From NCBI GenBank assembly GCA_946405105.1, contig CAMJFY010000008.1, forward strand, positions 1 through 63,028: DNA of 63,028 nt. Direction: 5' to 3'. The stretch comes from an uncultured Caryophanales bacterium (GTDB taxonomy: Bacteria > Bacillota_I > Bacilli_A > Acholeplasmatales > Anaeroplasmataceae). Below are positions 8,879 through 62,873 of the stretch, one piece after another; positions within the stretch are counted from its first letter, which is position 1, and each line of letters opens with the position of its first letter. Made by a program: the position numbers and the translations under genes. A model generated the notes under the pieces. That model made no database searches. It was not told the origin of the DNA and saw only the letters and a program-made list of their open reading frames with translations.

Positions 8879-8914
8879 ATTAGTTGAAAAAAATTATCAA
8901 TAAGCGTATAATTA

Positions 8915-9141
8915 CTTTGTCGATAATGAAGGACAAGATAATAAATTATAAATTTATAGAGAGAATATGGCCGGTGAAAATATTCAATTTTATTTATTAT
9001 TACTACCTTACTAGATTAATGGAGGAAATGCCATTACGTATTACTGCGTTAAAGTATTAATGAGTGCTAGATTATTCTAGAATAAAGGTGGTACCACGGT
9101 TTATATCGTCCTTAGGATTTAATATCTTAAGGACTTTTTTT
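8915..9141 (+). promoter_or_regulatory. T-box riboswitch controlling thrS
   Basis: The 5' part has the Stem I features: an AGGACAAGAT segment at the base, GAGAGAATATGGCCGGTGAAAA as the distal part, and adjoining threonine codons ACT (9002-9004) and ACC (9005-9007) where the specifier is expected; I cannot decide which is read. The T-box sequence AAAGGTGGTACCACGG is at 9085-9100. A terminator (9108-9118 with 9124-9134, then seven T) follows. Uncharged tRNA-Thr would favour the antiterminator and raise ThrRS synthesis. No other feature lies between dnaI and thrS. Confidence 0.93.
9108..9141 (+). terminator. T-box regulated terminator of thrS
   Basis: An 11-bp stem (one G-U pair) with a short AT loop, ending in seven T. 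The T-box sequence just upstream gives the competing antiterminator. Confidence 0.9.
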
Positions 9142-22046: not shown

Positions 22047-22112
22047 AAAAATATTTGCATTTTTTTGGTGAATGATGCATAATTAGATTGGTTATATTTG
22101 TTATAACTATAA

Positions 22113-22206
22113 TAGGGAATGATTGTCTCCCTTGCATTTATGCAAAACCGCTTCTTAAAGCTGATGACGTCTATGATTTTTTGTCATGGATAAATCAGCT
22201 TTTTTT
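22113..22206 (+). promoter_or_regulatory. Fluoride riboswitch (crcB motif) with terminator
   Basis: The aptamer has the crcB landmarks: stem AGGGA/TCCCT (22114-22118, 22128-22132) around an ATGATTGTC loop, a variable hairpin (TTGCAT/ATGCAA), AACCGC, then a GCTT/AAGC stem and GCTGATGACGTCTATG. The bases AAAGCTGAT (22157-22165) also pair with ATCAGCTTT (22194-22202), which leads into a T run, so the aptamer and terminator exclude each other. Fluoride binding should therefore turn on the antiporter gene. TATATT (22093) or TATAAT (22108) could be the -10. Confidence 0.87.
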
Positions 22207-23545: not shown

Positions 23546-24535
23546 ATGAAAAAAATAATTAGATTCTTAATGAGCTTTAGCTTTCTAATTATATCTATTT
23601 TATTATTAAGCTCATGTAAAAAAGATAAAATAGATATTAATTTATATCATTTAAGTAATAAAACAATTAATGGTATTAAATTTGTTGAAGAAAATACATC
23701 AAAAAAATATTCTGATAATACATTAGAATTAGATTTTGATTTATCATTAACAAATACAAAAAATAAAAAATTAAAATTAGAAATTAATAATCCAATTGCT
23801 TACGCAAATGATGCAATATTACCTGAAAAAATATATAAAAATTATAATAATGATTCACATGATAATGAATTATTTAATAAAGAAGAATATGAATTAAATA
23901 AAAAAGAAAAAATTGATATTAGATTCATACTTGTTATTGAATATGGCAATGTCGATGCTAAATATAATCTTTCATTTGATTTTAATGATGTTAAATTAAA
24001 TATTAATTATCATGAAGAAGGATATGAAACAGATAAATTTATTTATGCTCATAATCCATCATCTAATCCAAAAGTATTAGCTGATGCTGAAGTAAACGAA
24101 GATGCAGTATATGGCTTTATACCTAATGCGACTGGATCTTTGGCATCATATAGAGATTATGATTGGAATGATAAAGATGCTGTTGAAGTAGCTAAAAAAA
24201 ATAGAATTGAATATATTGAAACAAATGATAAGATGATTAGAAAATTAGAAAATGAATTAAGAAATCAAAATAAGAATATAGAAGAAATTGCAAGAGCGTG
24301 CTCTAATCTTCGTAATCAACTAAGATTAGATGCTTATAAAGATGATCCAGAAGGATTAGCAGCATTAAAACAAAGAAATTTAGAAAAATATGGACATGAA
24401 GAAGGACCATTACCTGAAGAATCATATGAGAAATATGGTTCATGGGAAAGAGTACTTGAAAAATGTTATAATCCAAACCCAGCTATGGATGCATGCTGTG
24501 GTGTATATGACATGTATTATTATTTATATAGTTAA
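23546..24535 (+). CDS. Hypothetical lipoprotein
   Basis: 329 residues. A lipoprotein signal peptide ends in LLLSSC with Cys24 as the lipidation site. The mature part has a strand-rich Asn/Lys/Asp-rich N-terminal half (about 30-165) and a helical, charged second half (DKMIRKLENELRNQNKNIEEIARACSNL, around 228-255, possibly coiled coil). Two cysteines close to the end (CCGVYDMYYY) are unusual. No family recognised. It has its own promoter and terminator, GGAGAG before ATG 23546, and precedes the signalling operon without being part of it. Confidence 0.75.
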   Translation: MKKIIRFLMSFSFLIISILLLSSCKKDKIDINLYHLSNKTINGIKFVEENTSKKYSDNTLELDFDLSLTNTKNKKLKLEINNPIAYANDAILPEKIYKNYNNDSHDNELFNKEEYELNKKEKIDIRFILVIEYGNVDAKYNLSFDFNDVKLNINYHEEGYETDKFIYAHNPSSNPKVLADAEVNEDAVYGFIPNATGSLASYRDYDWNDKDAVEVAKKNRIEYIETNDKMIRKLENELRNQNKNIEEIARACSNLRNQLRLDAYKDDPEGLAALKQRNLEKYGHEEGPLPEESYEKYGSWERVLEKCYNPNPAMDACCGVYDMYYYLYS

Positions 24536-24543
24536 TATTTATT

Positions 24544-24575
24544 AGCTTGATACTAAACTGTATCAAGCTTTTTTA
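24544..24575 (+). terminator. Terminator before the signalling operon (recurring family)
   Basis: AGCTTGATA (24544-24552) pairs with TATCAAGCT (24561-24569) and leads into T. Same GATAC/GTATC core as the terminators at 19689, 23409 and 30560. Confidence 0.88.
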
Positions 24576-24683: not shown

Positions 24684-27209
24684 ATGAGGAAAATATGGAT
24701 TATAGTTGTTAATGTATTCATTATGATTGCTATGCTTATTTTCGTAGCACTTTATTCTTATTTTGAAAATACTAATTTAACTAAAAGACAAATAGAACAT
24801 TATGAAAATACAACAATCACAATGGAACACGTTACTGAAAATTATTTAGAGGGAGAACAACGTATTTGTGATGTCTGGGCACAATATATAAATAATGAAA
24901 ATTTATCTATGGAAGAAGCAATAGCTTTTATTAGAGATTCTCATGTATTAGAAAATACATCAGCTCATATAATTTATAAAGATAATCTTACAGGATTATC
25001 TACTAGAATAAATATTAGTACTAATGACTATACAATAAATTATAATGCTATAGAGCTATTTAATGATGTAAGCTGGATTCATAATATTGGAGAATCAATT
25101 AATGTTTCAAGAGCTTATACTAATAAAGCTAGTGGAGAACAATGTATTGCGTTCTGTAATTTTATTACACTTAATGATGGTGGTATTTCTAAGGATGCTA
25201 TTTTACTTCGAGTTCTTCCAGTTTTAGAATTAAAAGAAAAATGGATTTTCCCACAAGAAGAATTTGCAGAAGCAGAATTATCTATTATAGATATCAATGG
25301 TGATTATATTATCAAAGGAAATTCTTTTAAGAATTCTAGCTTCTTTGAATTTTATAAATCATATAATAGTATTAATTCTAGCTCATCAGAAGATTTTTTC
25401 AAGAAAATAACTTCAACTACAGGATCATTTACAATGCTTAATTCACGTGGTGAAAAATGTATTTTATCATATACACCATTTGACGTAGCTGGTGGATGGA
25501 CATTATTGAGCTTAATGCCAATGAAATATTTAACATCAAATACACAAAATTGGCTTTTAATTGGTTTCGTTTCTGTTGGATTATTAATATTATTTGTTTT
25601 TGATTTGGCTGTTATGATTTATTTTAATAAGAGACTTCAAACAACAGCTAAAGAGGCAGATTCAGCTAATAAAGCTAAAACTGATTTCTTATCAACAATG
25701 TCTCATGATATTAGAACCCCAATGAACGCAATAATTGGATTTACAACAATTGCGAAAAACAATATTGAGGATAAAAAATCAGTAGAAGATAGCTTACATA
25801 AAATTGATTTAGCTAGTAATCATTTATTAACTTTAATTAATGATATATTAGATATTTCTAAGGTTGAAAGTGGAAAAACTAATTTATCTCCACAAAAAAT
25901 ATCTATTGTTTCAATAGTTGAAAATTTAGTAAATATTTCTCAACCATTAATAAAAGAAAAGAATATTGATTTTCAATTTAATATAGATAATATTGATAAA
26001 GAAAATCTATATGTAGATCAATTAAGATTAAATCAAATATTAATTAACATATTATCTAATGCTTTAAAATATACTGAACCAAATGGTATGGTTAAAGTAT
26101 TATTAAAGGAAGAAGAAAGCCAAAAGGCAGGATGTACTAAATTAACTTATAAGGTATCTGATACTGGTATTGGTATGAGCCCTGAATTTATGCAAAATAT
26201 GTATCAGCCATTTTTGCGTCAAACAGATAGTCGTGTAAATACAATTCAAGGAACAGGACTTGGACTTGCAATCACAAAACAAATGGTTGATTTAATGGAA
26301 GGAACAATTGATTGCCAAAGTGAAGTAGGAAAAGGTACTACATTTACAGTTGTTTTAGATATACCTATATCTGATCAACAAAGAATGGATTTAAAATTTG
26401 ATTCAATGGATATCTTAATTTGTGATAATGATGAAGCAATTATAAATTCTGAAGCCAATACTTTAAAATCTATAGGAATTAATGTAGACATGTCTTTAAA
26501 TGGAAAAGATATGATTGATAAAATTACTAAAAGACATGAAAATGGAAAAGATTATAATATATTAATTTTAGATTATAAGATTATAGATATTGATATTTTT
26601 GAATTGATTAATCTAATCAGAAAAAAGCTAGATTTAAATATTCCAATTATAATAATGTCTCAATATGATTTATCTGATGTTGAGAAGAATCTGAAAGATA
26701 GTGGAATAAATGGATTTATAAATAAACCTCTTTTCCGTTCTACAATTTATGATAAGATTAATGAAATATTAGGAAAAGAAAATAATATTATATCTGAAAA
26801 TGATTATTCTGATTTAAGAGGTTTAAATGTATTAGTAGCTGAAGATCATGATATTAATTTTGAAATTATTTATTCATTGTTACAAATGTATGGAATAAAT
26901 GCCATTCGTGCAACAAATGGACTAGATTGTATAGAAAAATTAAAAGAAGCACCAAAAGGCAAATATACACTTATATTTATGGATATTCAAATGCCAAAGA
27001 TGAATGGTTTAGATGCAACTAAAGCGATTAGAGCATTAGAAGATAAAGATATGGCATCAATTCCAATTATTGCAATGACGGCTGATGCTTTTTCAGAAAA
27101 TGTTACTGAATGCTTAAATGCTGGCATGAATGGACATATTGCTAAGCCTGTCGATATTAATCTTGTTATTAAAGAAATCAGAAGAATTAAGGAGGAATAT
27201 GAGAAATGA
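24684..27209 (+). CDS. Hybrid sensor histidine kinase with two receiver domains
   Basis: 841 residues. Membrane segment about 4-27, an extracellular sensor domain (about 28-287), a second membrane segment (about 290-313), then HisKA with FLSTMSHDIRTPMNAIIGF (phospho-acceptor His341), HATPase_c (N-box NILSNALKY, DTGIGMS, GTGLGLAI), a first receiver (about 565-690; Asp630 in LILDYK) and a second receiver (about 713-838; Asp767 in IFMDIQMPKMNG). Both receivers keep the acidic pocket and the lysine. The outside domain looks like a Cache-type fold but I cannot name it. The TGA stop overlaps the start of the solute-binding protein gene, and an EAL protein and an HPt protein follow, so it probably heads a phosphorelay. 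Confidence 0.93.
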   Translation: MRKIWIIVVNVFIMIAMLIFVALYSYFENTNLTKRQIEHYENTTITMEHVTENYLEGEQRICDVWAQYINNENLSMEEAIAFIRDSHVLENTSAHIIYKDNLTGLSTRINISTNDYTINYNAIELFNDVSWIHNIGESINVSRAYTNKASGEQCIAFCNFITLNDGGISKDAILLRVLPVLELKEKWIFPQEEFAEAELSIIDINGDYIIKGNSFKNSSFFEFYKSYNSINSSSSEDFFKKITSTTGSFTMLNSRGEKCILSYTPFDVAGGWTLLSLMPMKYLTSNTQNWLLIGFVSVGLLILFVFDLAVMIYFNKRLQTTAKEADSANKAKTDFLSTMSHDIRTPMNAIIGFTTIAKNNIEDKKSVEDSLHKIDLASNHLLTLINDILDISKVESGKTNLSPQKISIVSIVENLVNISQPLIKEKNIDFQFNIDNIDKENLYVDQLRLNQILINILSNALKYTEPNGMVKVLLKEEESQKAGCTKLTYKVSDTGIGMSPEFMQNMYQPFLRQTDSRVNTIQGTGLGLAITKQMVDLMEGTIDCQSEVGKGTTFTVVLDIPISDQQRMDLKFDSMDILICDNDEAIINSEANTLKSIGINVDMSLNGKDMIDKITKRHENGKDYNILILDYKIIDIDIFELINLIRKKLDLNIPIIIMSQYDLSDVEKNLKDSGINGFINKPLFRSTIYDKINEILGKENNIISENDYSDLRGLNVLVAEDHDINFEIIYSLLQMYGINAIRATNGLDCIEKLKEAPKGKYTLIFMDIQMPKMNGLDATKAIRALEDKDMASIPIIAMTADAFSENVTECLNAGMNGHIAKPVDINLVIKEIRRIKEEYEK

Positions 27210-28495
27210 AAAAAATATTTTATTGTTTTATAATGTTTTTTATATTACTTTGCGCAGTATCTTGTAAAAATTCTAAGAATAAATCTGATGAATTTAAACC
27301 AAGCTTAGATAAAAATAGAAGCTGTGATATAAGAATAGTTGGAAGTTATGATAATTTTGAATCTTTAGAAGCTGAATTTGATAAATTCAATAAATATTAT
27401 CCTAATGTTAATTTAAGCTATGAGAAAATAGATGATTATAATAATACATTATTTAGTGTATTAGAAGGTAAAGATAAACCTAATATATTCTTTTCAAACA
27501 CATGGATGATTGGTAATTCAAAATATGATAAAGTAGTTAGTCATATGGAAGATTTATCAGATTCTAATTTGAAATTAAATTTAGATTGTATTAGAGAAGG
27601 CCTTATTAATAAATCAAATGGAAAGATATTAATGTTACCAGTTTTTTCAAGAACATATGGTATGTTAATAAATGAAAATATTTTTAAAAAAGAAAAAATT
27701 AATATTCCTTCAACATGGACTGAATTAAAAGAAGTATGCAATTCATTTAATGAAAAAGGTTATGATAGTCCAATGATGGGCTATAGTGAAAAAACTTCAA
27801 GCTGCCTTATGAATACTATCGCATATCCTGCATTTGTGGCAGAATTAGCTAAAAATCCTGAAGCATTAGCTCTAGCTAATAATTTAGATAGCTCAGCAGG
27901 AGAATATTTACGTCCTGCATTAGAAAAAGTTGATTATCTTATTAAAAATGGATGTGTAGATATTACTGAATGTGATAACATTAAAGATAATTATAAAAAA
28001 GTATTATTACGCTTTTTTGAAGGTGATGTACCTATGATGATATGTACTGCTGATACAGTTTCAGGAACTAAAAAGCGTGAAACAGAATCAGAAGCATTCC
28101 AAGCATCACCATTTGATTATTCATTTTCACCTATACCATTTACTGATGAAGGAGGTTATTTTATTGATAGTCCTTCAGTAGAATTTTCAGTTAATAAGGA
28201 TTGTGAAAACCTAGATATGACAAATGAATTTATGCGTTTCTTAATTTCTACAAAAGAATTAAATGAAATGGCATCATCAAAGAGATTAGTAACTCCTACA
28301 AAAGATATGTCATTCCATTCAGTTTATAGTTCTTTTTCAAATATTCCATCAGAACGTATTATTTTCCCAGAAGTATTAGGAATTACTGATCAGCTTTCAG
28401 TTCAAACAAGAGTTGCATCATATAAAGTTGGAAGAGGCTTAATGACCATTGATGAAGCAGTTCTAAATTATGGTAATTTTGAAGATATAAAATAA
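27206..28495 (+). CDS. Extracellular solute-binding lipoprotein (family 1) in a signalling operon
   Basis: 429 residues. Lipobox AVSC with Cys20; the mature part follows the family 1 sugar-binding protein plan: RIVGSYDNFESLEAEFDKFNKYYPNVNLSYE, PNIFFSNTWM, then YGMLINENIFKKEKINIPSTWTELK and ENLDMTNEFMRFLIS. No permease or ATPase gene is next to it. It overlaps the kinase stop by 4 bases (ATGA), so the most likely job is to bind a ligand outside and present it to the kinase sensor domain rather than to a transporter. A transport role with permeases elsewhere (for example with MsmK) remains possible. Confidence 0.88.
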   Translation: MKKIFYCFIMFFILLCAVSCKNSKNKSDEFKPSLDKNRSCDIRIVGSYDNFESLEAEFDKFNKYYPNVNLSYEKIDDYNNTLFSVLEGKDKPNIFFSNTWMIGNSKYDKVVSHMEDLSDSNLKLNLDCIREGLINKSNGKILMLPVFSRTYGMLINENIFKKEKINIPSTWTELKEVCNSFNEKGYDSPMMGYSEKTSSCLMNTIAYPAFVAELAKNPEALALANNLDSSAGEYLRPALEKVDYLIKNGCVDITECDNIKDNYKKVLLRFFEGDVPMMICTADTVSGTKKRETESEAFQASPFDYSFSPIPFTDEGGYFIDSPSVEFSVNKDCENLDMTNEFMRFLISTKELNEMASSKRLVTPTKDMSFHSVYSSFSNIPSERIIFPEVLGITDQLSVQTRVASYKVGRGLMTIDEAVLNYGNFEDIK

Positions 28496-28525
28496 AATCA
28501 TTTCTATCAAAGAAAGGATGATTCT

Positions 28526-30211
28526 ATGCGAAATAATAATATTATTAATAAATTAAAAAGATATATTTTAATAGTAGAAGATGAATTCATCAATCAAGAA
28601 ATATTAAAGGAAATATTATCTAATGATTATGAAATATTAGTAGCTAATAATGGAATTGAAGCATTAGAAATATTAAAAACTTATTCAAAACCTATTTCTT
28701 TAATCTTACTTGATTTAAATATGCCTTTAATGGATGGATTTACGGTTTTAAAGGAAATAAAAAAAGATAAAGACAATATGAATATTCCAATTATTGTAAT
28801 AACTGGAGATAAAGGTAGTGAGCTTGAAGCATTAACATTAGGTGCTGTAGATTTCATTACTAAGCCATTTGACGCAACTGAAATAATAATGGCACGTGTT
28901 AATCGTTCAATAGAATTATCAGAAAAAAGAATTATTGTTAGTGCATCTGAAAGAGATGAATTAACAGATGTATATAATAAACATATCTTTGAAGAATATG
29001 TTGGAAGAATTAATAAATATAGACAAAATGAAAAGAAAGATATGATTGTCTTAAATATATCTCATTTTCATCTATATAATGAATTATATGGAAAAGAAGA
29101 GGGAGATAAAGCATTAGTATGCATTGCTAATGTATTAAAAGATATCGCAAGAATTAATGATGGTATTGTTTCAAGGCTTCAAAGAGATTATTTCGCATTA
29201 TTTATAAATCATTTAGATAATTATGATGAATTAGTTAATAAAATAAATAATGATTTAAAAGATAAATATAATATTTCAAATATTATTATAAGACTTGGTA
29301 TTTATTCATCTAATAATAATGAAGATGTTGATAATTGTATTGATAGAGCTAAATTAGTTTGTGATGAAATTAGAAATTCAAATTCTAAATTTTATAACAT
29401 ATATAATGATGATGATCAAAAGAATCAATTATTTAAAGAAAAATTAAATCATGATTTTAATAAAGCTATAGCTAATAAAGAATTTAAAGTTTATTATCAG
29501 CCTAAAATATCTATTTTAGGTGATAAATTTAAATTAGCATCTGCCGAAGCTTTAATTAGATGGATTCACCCAGAACTTGGATTTATATCTCCTGGTATGT
29601 TTATTCCTTTATTTGAAGAAAATGGAAATATTAAATTATTAGATCAATATGTTTGGAATGAGGCAGCCAAACAAATAAAGGAATGGCAAAATAAATATAA
29701 TATTACTTTACCTATTTCAGTAAATGTATCTAGAGCGGATATGTTTGATGAAAAGATAGTAGATATAATTAATAATATTGTTAAAGAAAGTGGAATAAAG
29801 CCTGAAAATTTATATTTAGAAATAACTGAATCTGCATATAATAATGAAACAGATCAAATCATTGGAATTATTAATAAATTAAGAGATTTAGGATTCAAAA
29901 TTGAAATTGATGATTTTGGTTCTGGATATTCATCACTTAATACTTTAGCTACATTATCTTTTGATTGTTTAAAGCTTGATATGAAATTTGTCCATGATAT
30001 GTTTAAAAATGATAAGACATTAAAGATGGTTGGAATAGTATCTGATATAGCAAAATATTTAAATGTTAAATTAGTTGCTGAAGGTGTTGAAACAAAAGAA
30101 CAATTAGATAAATTAAAACAATTTAATTATGATATTATTCAAGGCTATTATTTTTCTAAACCATTACCAAATGATGAATTTGAAAATTTATTTGGAAAGG
30201 AATTTAAATAG
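28526..30211 (+). CDS. Response regulator with degenerate GGDEF and intact EAL domain (c-di-GMP phosphodiesterase)
   Basis: 561 residues. Receiver domain 1-130 with Asp63 in LLDLNMPLMDG and the lysine in ITKPFDA. A GGDEF-like domain (about 150-295) has the GGDEF loop replaced by LQRDYF, so cyclase activity is not expected. The EAL domain (about 320-555) keeps the catalytic set: AEALIRW, SVNVSRAD, YLEITES, IDDFGSGYSSL, LKLDMKF, VAEGVET and QGYYFSKP. Prediction: phosphorylation-controlled hydrolysis of c-di-GMP to pGpG. It follows the binding-protein gene by 30 bases and the HPt gene starts next to its stop. Confidence 0.92.
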   Translation: MRNNNIINKLKRYILIVEDEFINQEILKEILSNDYEILVANNGIEALEILKTYSKPISLILLDLNMPLMDGFTVLKEIKKDKDNMNIPIIVITGDKGSELEALTLGAVDFITKPFDATEIIMARVNRSIELSEKRIIVSASERDELTDVYNKHIFEEYVGRINKYRQNEKKDMIVLNISHFHLYNELYGKEEGDKALVCIANVLKDIARINDGIVSRLQRDYFALFINHLDNYDELVNKINNDLKDKYNISNIIIRLGIYSSNNNEDVDNCIDRAKLVCDEIRNSNSKFYNIYNDDDQKNQLFKEKLNHDFNKAIANKEFKVYYQPKISILGDKFKLASAEALIRWIHPELGFISPGMFIPLFEENGNIKLLDQYVWNEAAKQIKEWQNKYNITLPISVNVSRADMFDEKIVDIINNIVKESGIKPENLYLEITESAYNNETDQIIGIINKLRDLGFKIEIDDFGSGYSSLNTLATLSFDCLKLDMKFVHDMFKNDKTLKMVGIVSDIAKYLNVKLVAEGVETKEQLDKLKQFNYDIIQGYYFSKPLPNDEFENLFGKEFK

Positions 30212-30550
30212 ATGTTAACAATAGAATCATTAAATAAATTTGGGGCAGATACATTAGATGGTATAAAAAGATGTGCAAATAATGAATCATTATATTTAAG
30301 ACTTGTTGGTATGGTCCCATCTAATCAAGGTTTTAATAATTTATATTCAGCAATTAAAAATAATGATTTAGATAATGCATTTTTAGCTGCCCATGGATTA
30401 AAAGGAATATTATCTAATTTATCATTAAATCCTATATTAAATCCGATTGTTGAAATAACTGAACATTTAAGAAATAGAGATAATATAGATTATTCAAATT
30501 ATATAAAAATAATAGAAGATGAAAGAAAAAAATTAGAAGAATTATTATAA
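30212..30550 (+). CDS. Stand-alone HPt phosphotransfer protein
   Basis: 112 residues, all helical. The HPt signature AAHGLKGILSNLS holds phospho-acceptor His61, and the flanking segments (LYLRLVGMV, DLDNAFLAAHGLKG, ITEHLRNRDNID) match the HPt four-helix bundle. It starts directly after the EAL gene stop and ends the operon before a terminator. It would carry phosphate from the kinase's receiver to the receiver of the EAL protein, completing a His-Asp-His-Asp relay. Confidence 0.9.
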   Translation: MLTIESLNKFGADTLDGIKRCANNESLYLRLVGMVPSNQGFNNLYSAIKNNDLDNAFLAAHGLKGILSNLSLNPILNPIVEITEHLRNRDNIDYSNYIKIIEDERKKLEELL

Positions 30551-30559
30551 TAAAATAAA

Positions 30560-30593
30560 AGGTTTGATAAGTTATTGTATCAAGCCTTTTTTA
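30560..30593 (+). terminator. Terminator of the signalling operon (recurring family)
   Basis: AGGTTTGATA (30560-30569) pairs with TATCAAGCCT (30578-30587; one G-T) and is followed by six T. Confidence 0.9.
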
Positions 30594-30670
30594 TTAGCCA
30601 TTTTATGTAAAAAATGATATAATATAAAATATAGGAAATGATTTAATAATTAATAAAAAGGTATATGTTT

Positions 30671-31402
30671 ATGAGAAAAATTTCAAAATTATTTATTTTA
30701 ACATTTTTATTAATCATGATTGTTACATTATCATCATCATGTAGCAAATCCCAAAATAAATCTAATAATGCTTTTTTAAATATTAGAGTTAATGATTCGA
30801 AAGATGATATTTCTTTATCTCTAGATCCGTCAGAAAAAGATTATACAACTGGTTTGGATACGAAAGCAATTGACAATTTCAGCCAAACATCTCCAGCAGC
30901 ATATCTATTCGCAAATCAATTCGCAAAGATTGGTGAGCTACACAGAGAAAGAGGAGACATAAGCTTCGATAAGACTTATGGTTATTCATTCTACATCGTA
31001 AATACAACATCAAACTTCCAGGATGTAACAGTTAGATTAAAGCTAACAATGACAAAGGATGATGGATTAAGTGATGCAATTAGAGTTATGACATACTACG
31101 AAGAAAGTGGTGTTCAAAACTTTAGAGTATATCAAAAGAATGATGAAACACCTACAACATATACAGCATACTCAATGATTGATGCGAGAAATGCTAGAAA
31201 GTATTTCAGCAAGAATGCTACATTAGTATTCGATACAAATTCTGTAGATGGCAGTAATGAAAATATTCATATTTCTGGTAAAAAAGGAAATAATTTCATA
31301 AAATATACAATTCTATTCTGGCTTGAAGGTGATGATCCTGATTGTAATGAAAACATCTTAGGAAAGAAATCAAAATTCAAATTAGAATTATCAACAATTT
31401 AA
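30671..31402 (+). CDS. Lipoprotein with TasA/camelysin-like pattern (tentative)
   Basis: 243 residues from ATG 30671 (AAAAGG nine bases before it; ATG 30665 is too close). The lipobox LSSSC gives Cys24. The mature part is strand-rich: YGYSFYIVNTTSNFQDVTVRL, then YTILFWLEGDDPDCNENILG near the end. The last phrase resembles the end of secreted TasA/camelysin-type fibre proteins and relatives in low-GC bacteria; this is a resemblance, not a firm assignment. The middle (about 30880-31240) uses many more C-ending codons than the ends, so the gene looks mosaic. Confidence 0.65.
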   Translation: MRKISKLFILTFLLIMIVTLSSSCSKSQNKSNNAFLNIRVNDSKDDISLSLDPSEKDYTTGLDTKAIDNFSQTSPAAYLFANQFAKIGELHRERGDISFDKTYGYSFYIVNTTSNFQDVTVRLKLTMTKDDGLSDAIRVMTYYEESGVQNFRVYQKNDETPTTYTAYSMIDARNARKYFSKNATLVFDTNSVDGSNENIHISGKKGNNFIKYTILFWLEGDDPDCNENILGKKSKFKLELSTI

Positions 31403-61712: not shown

Positions 61713-62873
61713 ATGGCTACACTTGATTTAAAAAACATTAATAAGATTTATCCTAATGGAGTTCAAGCAGTATTTGATTTCAACTTACACATTGATGATC
61801 AAGAATTCATTATTTTCGTTGGACCTTCAGGATGTGGTAAATCAACTACACTTCGTATGATCGCAGGTCTAGAAGATATTACATCTGGAGATTTCTATAT
61901 TGATGATGTAAGAATGAATAACATAAGCCCTAAAGATCGTGGTATTTCAATGGTATTCCAATCATACGCATTATATCCACATATGACAGTATTCGATAAC
62001 ATGGCATTCGCATTACAAATTAGACGTATGTCAAGAGAGGAAATTTCTAAGCGTGTTGCAGAAGCAGCTAAGATCTTAGGTCTAGAACCATTCCTATCTC
62101 GTTATCCTCGTCAATTATCAGGAGGTCAATGTCAGAGAGTTGCATTAGGACGTGCTATCGTTCAACATGCAGGCGTATTCTTACTAGACGAACCACTATC
62201 TAACCTAGATGCTAAGCTACGTGTAACAATGCGTGGTGAGTTAATTAAATTACATAAGAGATTAGGTTGTACTACAATTTATGTAACACATGACCAAATC
62301 GAAGCCATGACAATGGCAACAAGAATCGTAGTTATGAGAGATGGTAGAATCCAACAAGTTGGTGCTCCAAGAGATATTTATTCTACACCAGCTAACGTAT
62401 TCGTTGGTGGATTCATCGGTACACCTCCAATGAACTTCATCCATGGTCATTTAAAAGACAATGGTACATTCGTTTCTCAAAAGGGTAACTACACAATTCG
62501 TATCCCTGAAGGAAAATTAAAATATCCTAGAGAATTAGGTTATGAAAATAGAGACGTTATCTTAGGTATTAGACCAGAAGATATTTATGATAACCAAAAT
62601 CCTGAAATGTTCGAAGTATGGCCTCAAGGCGTAGTAGACATTACAGTTGAATTATCAGAATTATTAGGTGCTGAAACAAACATCTATACTAATATTGATG
62701 GAGACCCAGTTATTGCTGCTGTTCCTTCAAGAGCAGACTTAGCTCCTGGTCAACCATTAAAGTTAGTTTTCGACTTAAATCACATTCATTTCTTTGATGA
62801 GGACACTGAAAAAATCATTAATCAAAATTCAGAGCGTGCTCAAGCAAAAGATGAAGACGATATGGACATCTAA
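61713..62873 (+). CDS. msmK: Sugar ABC importer ATPase (MsmK/UgpC/MalK family)
   Basis: 386 residues, full length. Walker A GPSGCGKST, Q-loop FQSYALYPHMTV, signature LSGGQCQRVALGRA and Walker B VFLLDEPLSNLDAKLR, then the C-terminal regulatory OB/TOBE domain (GIRPEDIYD, residues about 290-300 onward). These ATPases energise several different carbohydrate importers from one gene; no binding protein or permease lies beside it. Codons are strongly biased to preferred C-ending forms, so it is probably well expressed. GGAGGT before ATG 61713. Confidence 0.95.
   Translation: MATLDLKNINKIYPNGVQAVFDFNLHIDDQEFIIFVGPSGCGKSTTLRMIAGLEDITSGDFYIDDVRMNNISPKDRGISMVFQSYALYPHMTVFDNMAFALQIRRMSREEISKRVAEAAKILGLEPFLSRYPRQLSGGQCQRVALGRAIVQHAGVFLLDEPLSNLDAKLRVTMRGELIKLHKRLGCTTIYVTHDQIEAMTMATRIVVMRDGRIQQVGAPRDIYSTPANVFVGGFIGTPPMNFIHGHLKDNGTFVSQKGNYTIRIPEGKLKYPRELGYENRDVILGIRPEDIYDNQNPEMFEVWPQGVVDITVELSELLGAETNIYTNIDGDPVIAAVPSRADLAPGQPLKLVFDLNHIHFFDEDTEKIINQNSERAQAKDEDDMDI

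What the first reader, a model, noticed from the sequence alone, without database searches (positions are those of the whole stretch)
24684..30550. Complete phosphorelay with its own ligand-binding lipoprotein and a c-di-GMP phosphodiesterase output
Seen: four co-directional genes, overlapping or within about 30 bases of each other, between two terminators: hybrid kinase (His341, Asp630, Asp767), solute-binding lipoprotein without transporter genes, receiver-GGDEF-EAL protein (Asp63) and a lone HPt protein (His61). Known: hybrid kinases pass phosphate His-Asp-His-Asp through HPt proteins. Inference: the lipoprotein is the sensor subunit, like LuxP for LuxQ, and the pathway LuxP/LuxQ/LuxU finds an analogue here with c-di-GMP hydrolysis as output.
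Basis: partly seen in the sequence, partly recalled or inferred. Interest (0 to 1): 0.78.

Follow-up and report, generated by a model that had tools for sequence, protein, structure and literature searches.

The report
Nutrient-sensing phosphorelay controlling cyclic di-GMP
Four neighbouring genes appear to form one signalling chain in which a surface-anchored solute-binding protein reports to a membrane kinase, and phosphate is then passed to an enzyme that destroys the messenger cyclic di-GMP; the parts resemble known ones, but this conserved combination seems not to have been described.

Summary
In detail: hybrid kinase (HK), solute-binding lipoprotein (SBP), REC-GGDEF-EAL protein and lone HPt form one tight run between two terminator-like hairpins, with all five phospho-sites present. 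Relatives show it is no accident. A search with the kinase's sensor domain found 10 of 395 genomes of the class; in 9 of 9 with readable flank the SBP gene lies beside the kinase, often sharing an ATGA stop/start. All 10 also have a REC-GGDEF-EAL relative with an HPt beside it; 6 of 385 other genomes have such an EAL relative. The two pairs are linked in some genomes, in varying order, and on different contigs in others. In the own draft genome (91% complete) searches found one HPt, one hybrid kinase, one REC-EAL and one SBP_bac_1 protein; the only sugar-type permease pair found has its own adjacent lipoprotein. The sensor is predicted to be a dCache domain. Best reading: an SBP-dependent multistep phosphorelay to a c-di-GMP phosphodiesterase. 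The LuxP/LuxQ/LuxU comparison is functional analogy only. Ligand, sign of the response, SBP-kinase contact and phosphotransfer are untested. In Clostridia-type relatives the EAL output is fused to an amino-acid permease and a canonical GGDEF domain.

The parts
24544..24569 (+). terminator-like hairpin upstream of the operon
   Evidence: z -6.8
24684..27209 (+). hybrid histidine kinase: membrane helix, dCache-type extracytoplasmic sensor (about 30-285), membrane helix, HisKA (His341), HATPase, REC1 (Asp630), REC2 (Asp767)
27206..28495 (+). solute-binding lipoprotein (SBP_bac_1 family; invariant Cys20 at the lipobox), start codon overlapping the kinase stop codon
28526..30211 (+). REC (Asp63) - degenerate GGDEF - EAL; predicted c-di-GMP phosphodiesterase
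30212..30550 (+). stand-alone HPt phosphotransfer protein (His61)
30557..30590 (+). terminator-like hairpin downstream of the operon
   Evidence: z -5.2

Best explanation
An SBP-dependent multistep phosphorelay with a c-di-GMP phosphodiesterase as output. The lipoprotein, anchored outside the membrane, binds a solute and acts on the dCache sensor of the hybrid kinase. The kinase then changes its net kinase/phosphatase activity; phosphate passes His341 -> Asp767 (REC2) -> His61 of the HPt -> Asp63 of the REC-GGDEF-EAL protein, changing hydrolysis of c-di-GMP. REC1 (Asp630) is probably accessory. Shown here: gene order and its conservation, phospho-sites and catalytic residues, co-occurrence, no importer operon around the SBP. 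Inferred: SBP-kinase contact, phosphotransfer. Unknown: the ligand (the fold points to oligosaccharide binders, transporter neighbours in some relatives rather to amino acids or organic acids), and whether it raises or lowers c-di-GMP.
For: HK-SBP adjacency: 14 of 14 readable loci (17 loci; L005, L016, L017 are cut off on the kinase side) and 9 of 9 strong matches, the window's own included. By the kinase sensor: 10 of 395 class genomes, 9 of 9 readable; three of these (G000, G018, G007) were already known; once the SBP is on the opposite strand (G256, L147). Of 26 junctions 20 overlap as ATGA, 3 by one base (TAATG), 1 by more, 2 have gaps of 2-3 bases. REC-GGDEF-EAL: 10 of 10 carriers against 6 of 385 others (Fisher p 3.5e-16, kinship not corrected). 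HPt directly beside that EAL gene in 14 of 16 genomes. Own genome: one HPt; seven REC domains (two in the kinase, one in the EAL protein, four in other regulators); one SBP_bac_1. EAL catalytic residues invariant in 11 of 11. Orders seen: HK-SBP-EAL-HPt, EAL-HPt-HK-SBP, SBP divergent from HK-EAL-HPt, and with more distant proteins HPt-EAL-SBP-SBP-HK.
Against: No phosphotransfer, binding or c-di-GMP was measured. dCache domains commonly bind small ligands themselves, so the SBP may be dispensable. EAL-HPt pairs occur in 4 genomes where the kinase sensor was not found (G228, G313, G384, G402; in G313 beside a different hybrid kinase), and in G352 with another kinase between EAL and HPt. HPts of the wider family are also found, with E below 1e-20, in 11 of 23 non-carriers chosen. 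One carrier, G024 (73% complete), has no convincing HPt. The sensor profile was built from kinases first found beside the SBP, so the two adjacency counts are not fully independent. In G319 and G146 a secondary transporter gene follows the SBP, though after a hairpin with a T run. The genome is a 34-contig draft, 91% complete. The SBP model is poor (mean pLDDT 63.8).
Confidence: 0.72

Rival explanations
1. The kinase senses a ligand directly through its dCache domain; the SBP is a co-regulated scavenger or modulator and not the sensor subunit.
Against: The SBP is beside this kinase in all readable relatives, also after an inversion, and mostly overlaps its stop codon; two kinase paralogues in one genome (G013) each have their own SBP paralogue. 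The amino-acid motif of dCache_1AA domains (recalled) is not evident by eye in the alignment.
Confidence: 0.15
2. The lipoprotein is a transport SBP that serves a permease encoded elsewhere; its place beside the kinase reflects co-regulation only.
For: The own genome has one permease pair whose second member resembles UgpE/MalG, below those families' cut-offs (C2), and a UgpC-type ATPase at window 61713-62873. In L015 a BPD_transp_1 permease gene lies about 2 kb upstream of the kinase, and in L050 an ORF that reads as an ABC ATPase about 2.5 kb downstream of the SBP (by eye).
Against: That pair has its own adjacent 788-aa lipoprotein, which however matches no Pfam or NCBIfam model, so that its SBP role is inferred. 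The other two importers have SBPs recognised by Pfam. Of 110 ORFs scanned of 140 flanking 29 HK-SBP pairs, at most one matches BPD_transp_1. The gene is coupled to the kinase gene.
Confidence: 0.08
3. HK-SBP and EAL-HPt are two independent systems that happen to be neighbours; the HPt/EAL receives phosphate from another kinase.
For: In 6 of the 10 carriers the two pairs lie on different contigs (for G378 the contig ends leave direct linkage open); EAL-HPt also occurs where HK-SBP was not found.
Against: The pairs still occur in the same genomes (10 of 10); where linked, they are so in different orders; in the own genome this is the only hybrid kinase found, and Asp63 the only receiver outside the kinase that is not in a regulator of 208-256 aa.
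Confidence: 0.05

Closest known systems
CuaD-CuaS-CuaR of Ruminiclostridium cellulolyticum, and XylFII-LytS as cited there (PMC10384115, passages read)
   Same: a solute-binding lipoprotein encoded beside a histidine kinase, separate from the importer's own SBP, binds the kinase's extracytoplasmic domain
   Different: a system with an AraC-type regulator that induces transporter genes; no HPt or c-di-GMP enzyme in the passages; the CuaS sensor model has 7 helices, here a dCache domain
VieS-VieA (VieB) of Vibrio cholerae (PMC4352251, passages read)
   Same: multistep phosphorelay from a sensor kinase through HPt to a response regulator with a c-di-GMP phosphodiesterase domain
   Different: ligand-binding domains and HPt are parts of VieS, VieA also has a DNA-binding domain; here SBP and HPt are separate proteins and the output is REC-GGDEF-EAL
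RocS1-RocR of Pseudomonas aeruginosa (PMC3083521, passages read)
   Same: the HPt domain of the sensor interacts with the receiver of a REC-EAL regulator described as a phosphodiesterase
   Different: HPt is part of the sensor, branched with a DNA-binding regulator; a separate SBP gene was not mentioned in the passages seen
LuxP-LuxQ-LuxU (recalled)
   Same: separate binding protein, hybrid kinase and stand-alone HPt
   Different: SBP family differs, the kinase is far under the LuxQ family cut-off, and the output is not a LuxO-type transcription regulator

Membership tests
His-Asp-His-Asp phosphorelay with hybrid kinase | conserved phospho-acceptors in HisKA, REC, HPt and output REC | tested here: met
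   His341, Asp630, Asp767 invariant in 14 two-receiver kinases; REC2 kept in 29 of 29 compared, REC1 in 25; His61 in 16 HPts; Asp63 in 11 regulators
His-Asp-His-Asp phosphorelay with hybrid kinase | phosphate actually passes through all steps | not testable with these tools
   needs purified proteins
SBP-kinase three-component systems (CuaDS, XylFII-LytS) | SBP gene beside the kinase and not part of an importer operon | tested here: met
   14 of 14, 9 of 9 and 9 of 9 readable loci, sets overlapping by three genomes; at most 1 of 110 flanking ORFs scanned is an ABC permease
SBP-kinase three-component systems (CuaDS, XylFII-LytS) | SBP binds the kinase's extracytoplasmic domain | not testable with these tools
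EAL phosphodiesterases | all catalytic and metal-binding residues present | tested here: met
   E341, N400, E432, D462, D463, K483, E519, Q539 invariant in 11 of 11; the residue roles are recalled
GGDEF diguanylate cyclases | GG[DE]EF active-site motif | tested here: not met
   the window protein reads LQRDYF at that place; no GGDEF motif there in any of the 11 aligned proteins
LuxPQU | LuxQ family membership of the kinase | tested here: not met
   293.5 bits against cut-off 1200, best stretch in the kinase-receiver part
LuxPQU | LuxP-type binding protein | tested here: not met
   SBP_bac_1/SBP_bac_8; the 14 PDB sequences matched are SBPs of the MsmE/RafE kind and similar
LuxPQU | stand-alone HPt | tested here: met
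   112-aa ORF with only the Hpt match
VieSA/Roc | HPt as a domain of the sensor kinase | tested here: not met
   no Hpt match in the kinase at E up to 0.1; HPt is a separate gene
VieSA/Roc | REC-EAL phosphodiesterase output | tested here: met
   domains and residues only; activity not tested

The most novel reading that the evidence does not exclude
The REC-GGDEF-EAL protein is a nutrient-integration node. In the window lineage an SBP sets its activity through a multistep relay. In Clostridia-type relatives the same output is fused to an amino-acid permease and a canonical GGDEF domain, so that amino-acid transport and the SBP signal would act on c-di-GMP through one protein: a transporter-cyclase-phosphodiesterase under phosphorelay control. 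No such fusion appears among the papers listed (10 of 41 listed; 5 of 5).
Probability: 0.35. Interest if true: 0.72.

Novelty: new variant of a known kind. Interest (0 to 1): 0.5.

Why it matters
The SBP-kinase systems that PMC10384115 reviews include at least four that control transporter genes (passage). Here the same kind of sensor would act, without transcription, on a second messenger, in small-genome Bacillota known mostly from gut and rumen assemblies (titles). The own genome has 21 GGDEF and 6 EAL matches in 1.43 Mb. With one HPt, one hybrid kinase and one REC-EAL protein found, the wiring is unusually clear and can be tested with four purified proteins. The conserved gene pair also gives a handle for finding the ligand of an orphan SBP family.

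Tried and rejected
LuxPQU homology: rejected. No LuxQ entry appears among the 50 rows, which excludes nothing. PF01627 alone as an HPt counter: rejected, because it missed the HPt of G018 that the gene map shows; a profile of 16 HPts was used instead. Its second own-genome match (E 3.7e-5) lies inside a 423-aa ORF that reads as a phosphofructokinase (my reading) and was dropped as chance. Ligand from the SBP model: not attempted beyond the fold, as pLDDT is 63.8. Promoters: 58 sites against 74.7 expected from shuffles, so none is claimed. A plain claim of 'no permease nearby' was tested and narrowed: of 140 ORFs flanking 29 pairs, 110 were scanned; the 30 left out were EAL, HPt and fusion genes known from other calls and four other-strand or short ORFs. 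Only 25 of 131 families are shown, all with two or more members being among them; BPD_transp_1 is not, and one ORF (L015:3785-4450) has it. A CitMHS/ArsB-type gene (G319) and an Asp-Al_Ex gene (G146) follow the SBP, each after a hairpin with a T run, seen by eye. The ORF picker sometimes takes the wrong strand in GC-rich loci. Co-occurrence: an EAL relative was counted when its match starts by profile position 11 and E is at most 2.3e-149, chosen after seeing the rows; G015's weaker match (position 8, E 6.2e-106, in an 1190-aa frame) was left out and would make it 7 of 385. G267 is counted although it is 34% identical and has no HPt beside it. I assume that searches drew the same 395 genomes. 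Literature: ten searches, of which only listings were seen, often a small part of the papers that held the terms (10 of 839, 8 of 1,022); four papers were opened, passages only. No listed title or abstract start describes the four-part system; only open-licence PMC papers are held. One search was an empty script.
Full report
What is there. The window is contig C8 of a draft genome of 1,434,575 bases in 34 contigs, 91.3% complete. Related loci carry titles such as Bacilli, Erysipelotrichaceae, Clostridiales and Ruminococcaceae, many of them gut or rumen assemblies; the exact taxon was not established. Four genes on the + strand form one run: kinase 24684-27209, lipoprotein 27206-28495, REC-GGDEF-EAL 28526-30211 and HPt 30212-30550, with a 4-base overlap, a 30-base gap and a 0-base gap. 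Hairpins followed by T runs bound it on both sides. Domains were confirmed by Pfam.

Phospho-sites and catalysis. His341, Asp630 and Asp767 are invariant in 14 aligned two-receiver kinases, Asp63 in 11 regulators, His61 with Lys64 and Gly65 in 16 HPts. The EAL domain keeps the residues that I recall as catalytic or metal-binding in 11 of 11 sequences, while its GGDEF motif is degenerate. So the regulator is predicted to hydrolyse c-di-GMP and not to make it.

Which receiver relays? Among two-receiver relatives REC2 is 63-78% identical to the window's, REC1 37-52%. Four of 29 kinases compared, the window included (G011, G007, G024, G256), have one receiver; each matches REC2 (75-95 identities in 122-124 positions) far better than REC1 (32-36 in 111-118). 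A tree of 23 of the kinases needs three changes for this trait; G256 is a long branch. Hence Asp767 is the likely relay site and REC1 accessory. G024's kinase sequence is partial.

The kinase-lipoprotein pair. A search of genome contigs with the lipoprotein gave 17 loci; in the 14 whose kinase-side flank is held, the same kinase lies directly upstream. In 100 relatives, 24 genomes matched; 9 strong matches in 8 genomes all have the kinase beside them, the rest are weak matches to other SBPs. To choose loci by the kinase, I searched 395 genomes of the class with the sensor alone: 10 matched, three of them known already. The profile itself was built from kinases found beside the lipoprotein. The lipoprotein is adjacent in 9 of 9 with readable flank; the contig of G378 ends inside the kinase. 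In G256 the lipoprotein is on the opposite strand, divergent from HK-EAL-HPt (L147), so adjacency goes with an inversion. At 26 junctions the lipoprotein gene overlaps the kinase stop as ATGA in 20, by one base in 3, by more in 1, and follows after 2-3 bases in 2. Transport SBPs are usually made in excess of their permease (recalled); coupling to a kinase fits a stoichiometric partner better. G013 holds two paralogous systems, each kinase with its own lipoprotein.

Transporters. The own genome has four BPD_transp_1 matches: a pair whose second member resembles UgpE/MalG below cut-off, with an adjacent 788-aa lipoprotein without family match; an amino-acid type with a SBP_bac_3 protein; and one more with an NMT1-like protein. 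The window's protein is the only SBP_bac_1 match. A UgpC-type ATPase lies at 61713-62873. Service to the pair in trans is unlikely but not excluded. Around 29 HK-SBP pairs, 110 of 140 flanking ORFs were scanned: at most one is an ABC permease (L015, about 2 kb upstream of the kinase). In G319 and G146 a secondary transporter gene (CitMHS/ArsB type; Asp-Al_Ex) is the next gene after the lipoprotein, but after a hairpin with a T run, so HK-SBP looks like a closed two-gene unit there.

The EAL-HPt pair. Of the 395 genomes, 16 have a REC-GGDEF-EAL relative aligned from the receiver onwards; all 10 kinase carriers are among them, against 6 of 385 others (Fisher 3.5e-16, kinship not corrected, only three candidates scored per genome). 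An HPt lies directly beside it in 14 of 16; in G352 a kinase lies between, in G267 there is none. In six carriers the pair lies on another contig than HK-SBP (G125, G146, G319, G348, G375, G378). In G313 the pair follows a different hybrid kinase, and in G228, G384 and G402 no hybrid kinase is directly beside it. Of 38 genomes chosen for, 14 of 15 carriers had an HPt at E below 1e-20 and G024 (73% complete) did not; so had 11 of 23 non-carriers. Of these, G006 has EAL-HPt with a distant kinase and two lipoproteins (L052), G015's HPt is at a contig end, and the others inspected sit beside other regulators, kinases or unrelated genes.

Wiring in the own genome. One HPt; seven receivers, four of them in regulators of 208-256 aa; nine HATPase matches, of which four read as two gyrase/topoisomerase subunits, HtpG and MutL (my reading). 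Three of the four other regulators have a kinase within about 1.5 kb; the fourth, on C2, has only a weak kinase match 3.6 kb away. By elimination the HPt's target is Asp63, as far as a 91% draft allows.

A related output in Clostridia-type assemblies. In L006, L010, L012, L016 and L018 the next gene of the system encodes an amino-acid permease - GGDEF - REC - GGDEF - EAL protein of 1362-1469 aa, followed by an HPt; its first GGDEF has the RTGGDEF motif in 5 of 5. In L006 an ORF of doubtful reality lies between. L016's ORF begins inside the permease domain. For L006 and L012 the HPt is seen in tblastn though the ORF picker chose the other strand. In L010 and L018 a SBP_bac_3 - GGDEF - EAL protein is encoded upstream of the kinase.

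Comparison with the known. SBP-kinase pairs are known (CuaDS, XylFII-LytS; PMC10384115), and relays to EAL regulators are known (VieSA, PMC4352251; RocS1-RocR, PMC3083521; passages only). The combination of separate SBP, separate HPt and REC-GGDEF-EAL output, found together in genomes of five families of the class (f1, f9, f11, f19, f23) and linked in f1 and f11, was not described in the titles and abstract starts listed by the ten paper searches. I file it as a new variant of a known kind.

Noticed in passing
L010:10349-14758 (also L006, L012, L016, L018): Amino-acid permease fused to a canonical GGDEF, a receiver, a degenerate GGDEF and an EAL domain, downstream of HK-SBP and followed by HPt; in L006, L010, L016 and L018 a lone receiver match follows the HPt.
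   Followed up: partly
L010:577-3654 and L018:3229-6141: SBP_bac_3 domain fused to GGDEF and EAL, encoded upstream of the kinase; L018 also has a dCache-HAMP-GGDEF gene before it.
   Followed up: partly
L142:10375-11673 and L144:10307-11473: A CitMHS/ArsB-type transporter and an Asp-Al_Ex permease are the next genes after the SBP in G319 and G146, each after a hairpin with a T run; a possible hint at the ligand.
   Followed up: partly
L052 (G006:C30): A distant version of the system: HPt, REC-GGDEF-EAL, two lipoproteins of about 600 aa (one SBP_bac_8-like) and a 956-aa hybrid kinase in a row on one strand.
   Followed up: partly
L184, L185, L186, L187, L188, L189: Non-carrier relatives have HPts beside other regulators or kinases; those scanned are REC-HD (L184) and REC-HD-GGDEF (L186, next to a hybrid kinase), so HPt relays to c-di-GMP enzymes seem a wider theme.
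   Followed up: partly
G000 genome-wide: 21 GGDEF and 6 EAL matches in a 1.43 Mb genome, a dense c-di-GMP network for its size.
   Followed up: no
window 27206-28495 and 24684-25673: Five cysteines of the lipoprotein besides the lipobox (40, 128, 178, 256, 333) are invariant in 11 sequences, and three of the kinase sensor (62, 158, 259) in 14; unexplained.
   Followed up: partly
window 22106-22180: Fluoride riboswitch at or just before the start of a Na_H_Exchanger-family gene; T-box leader at 8914-9116.
   Followed up: no
window 23546-24535 and 30665-31402: Two lipoprotein-like genes of no convincing known family flank the operon outside its hairpins.
   Followed up: no
L005: The lipoprotein gene is followed by a second, different kinase (34% identical to the window's); the upstream side is cut off by the contig end.
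   Followed up: no
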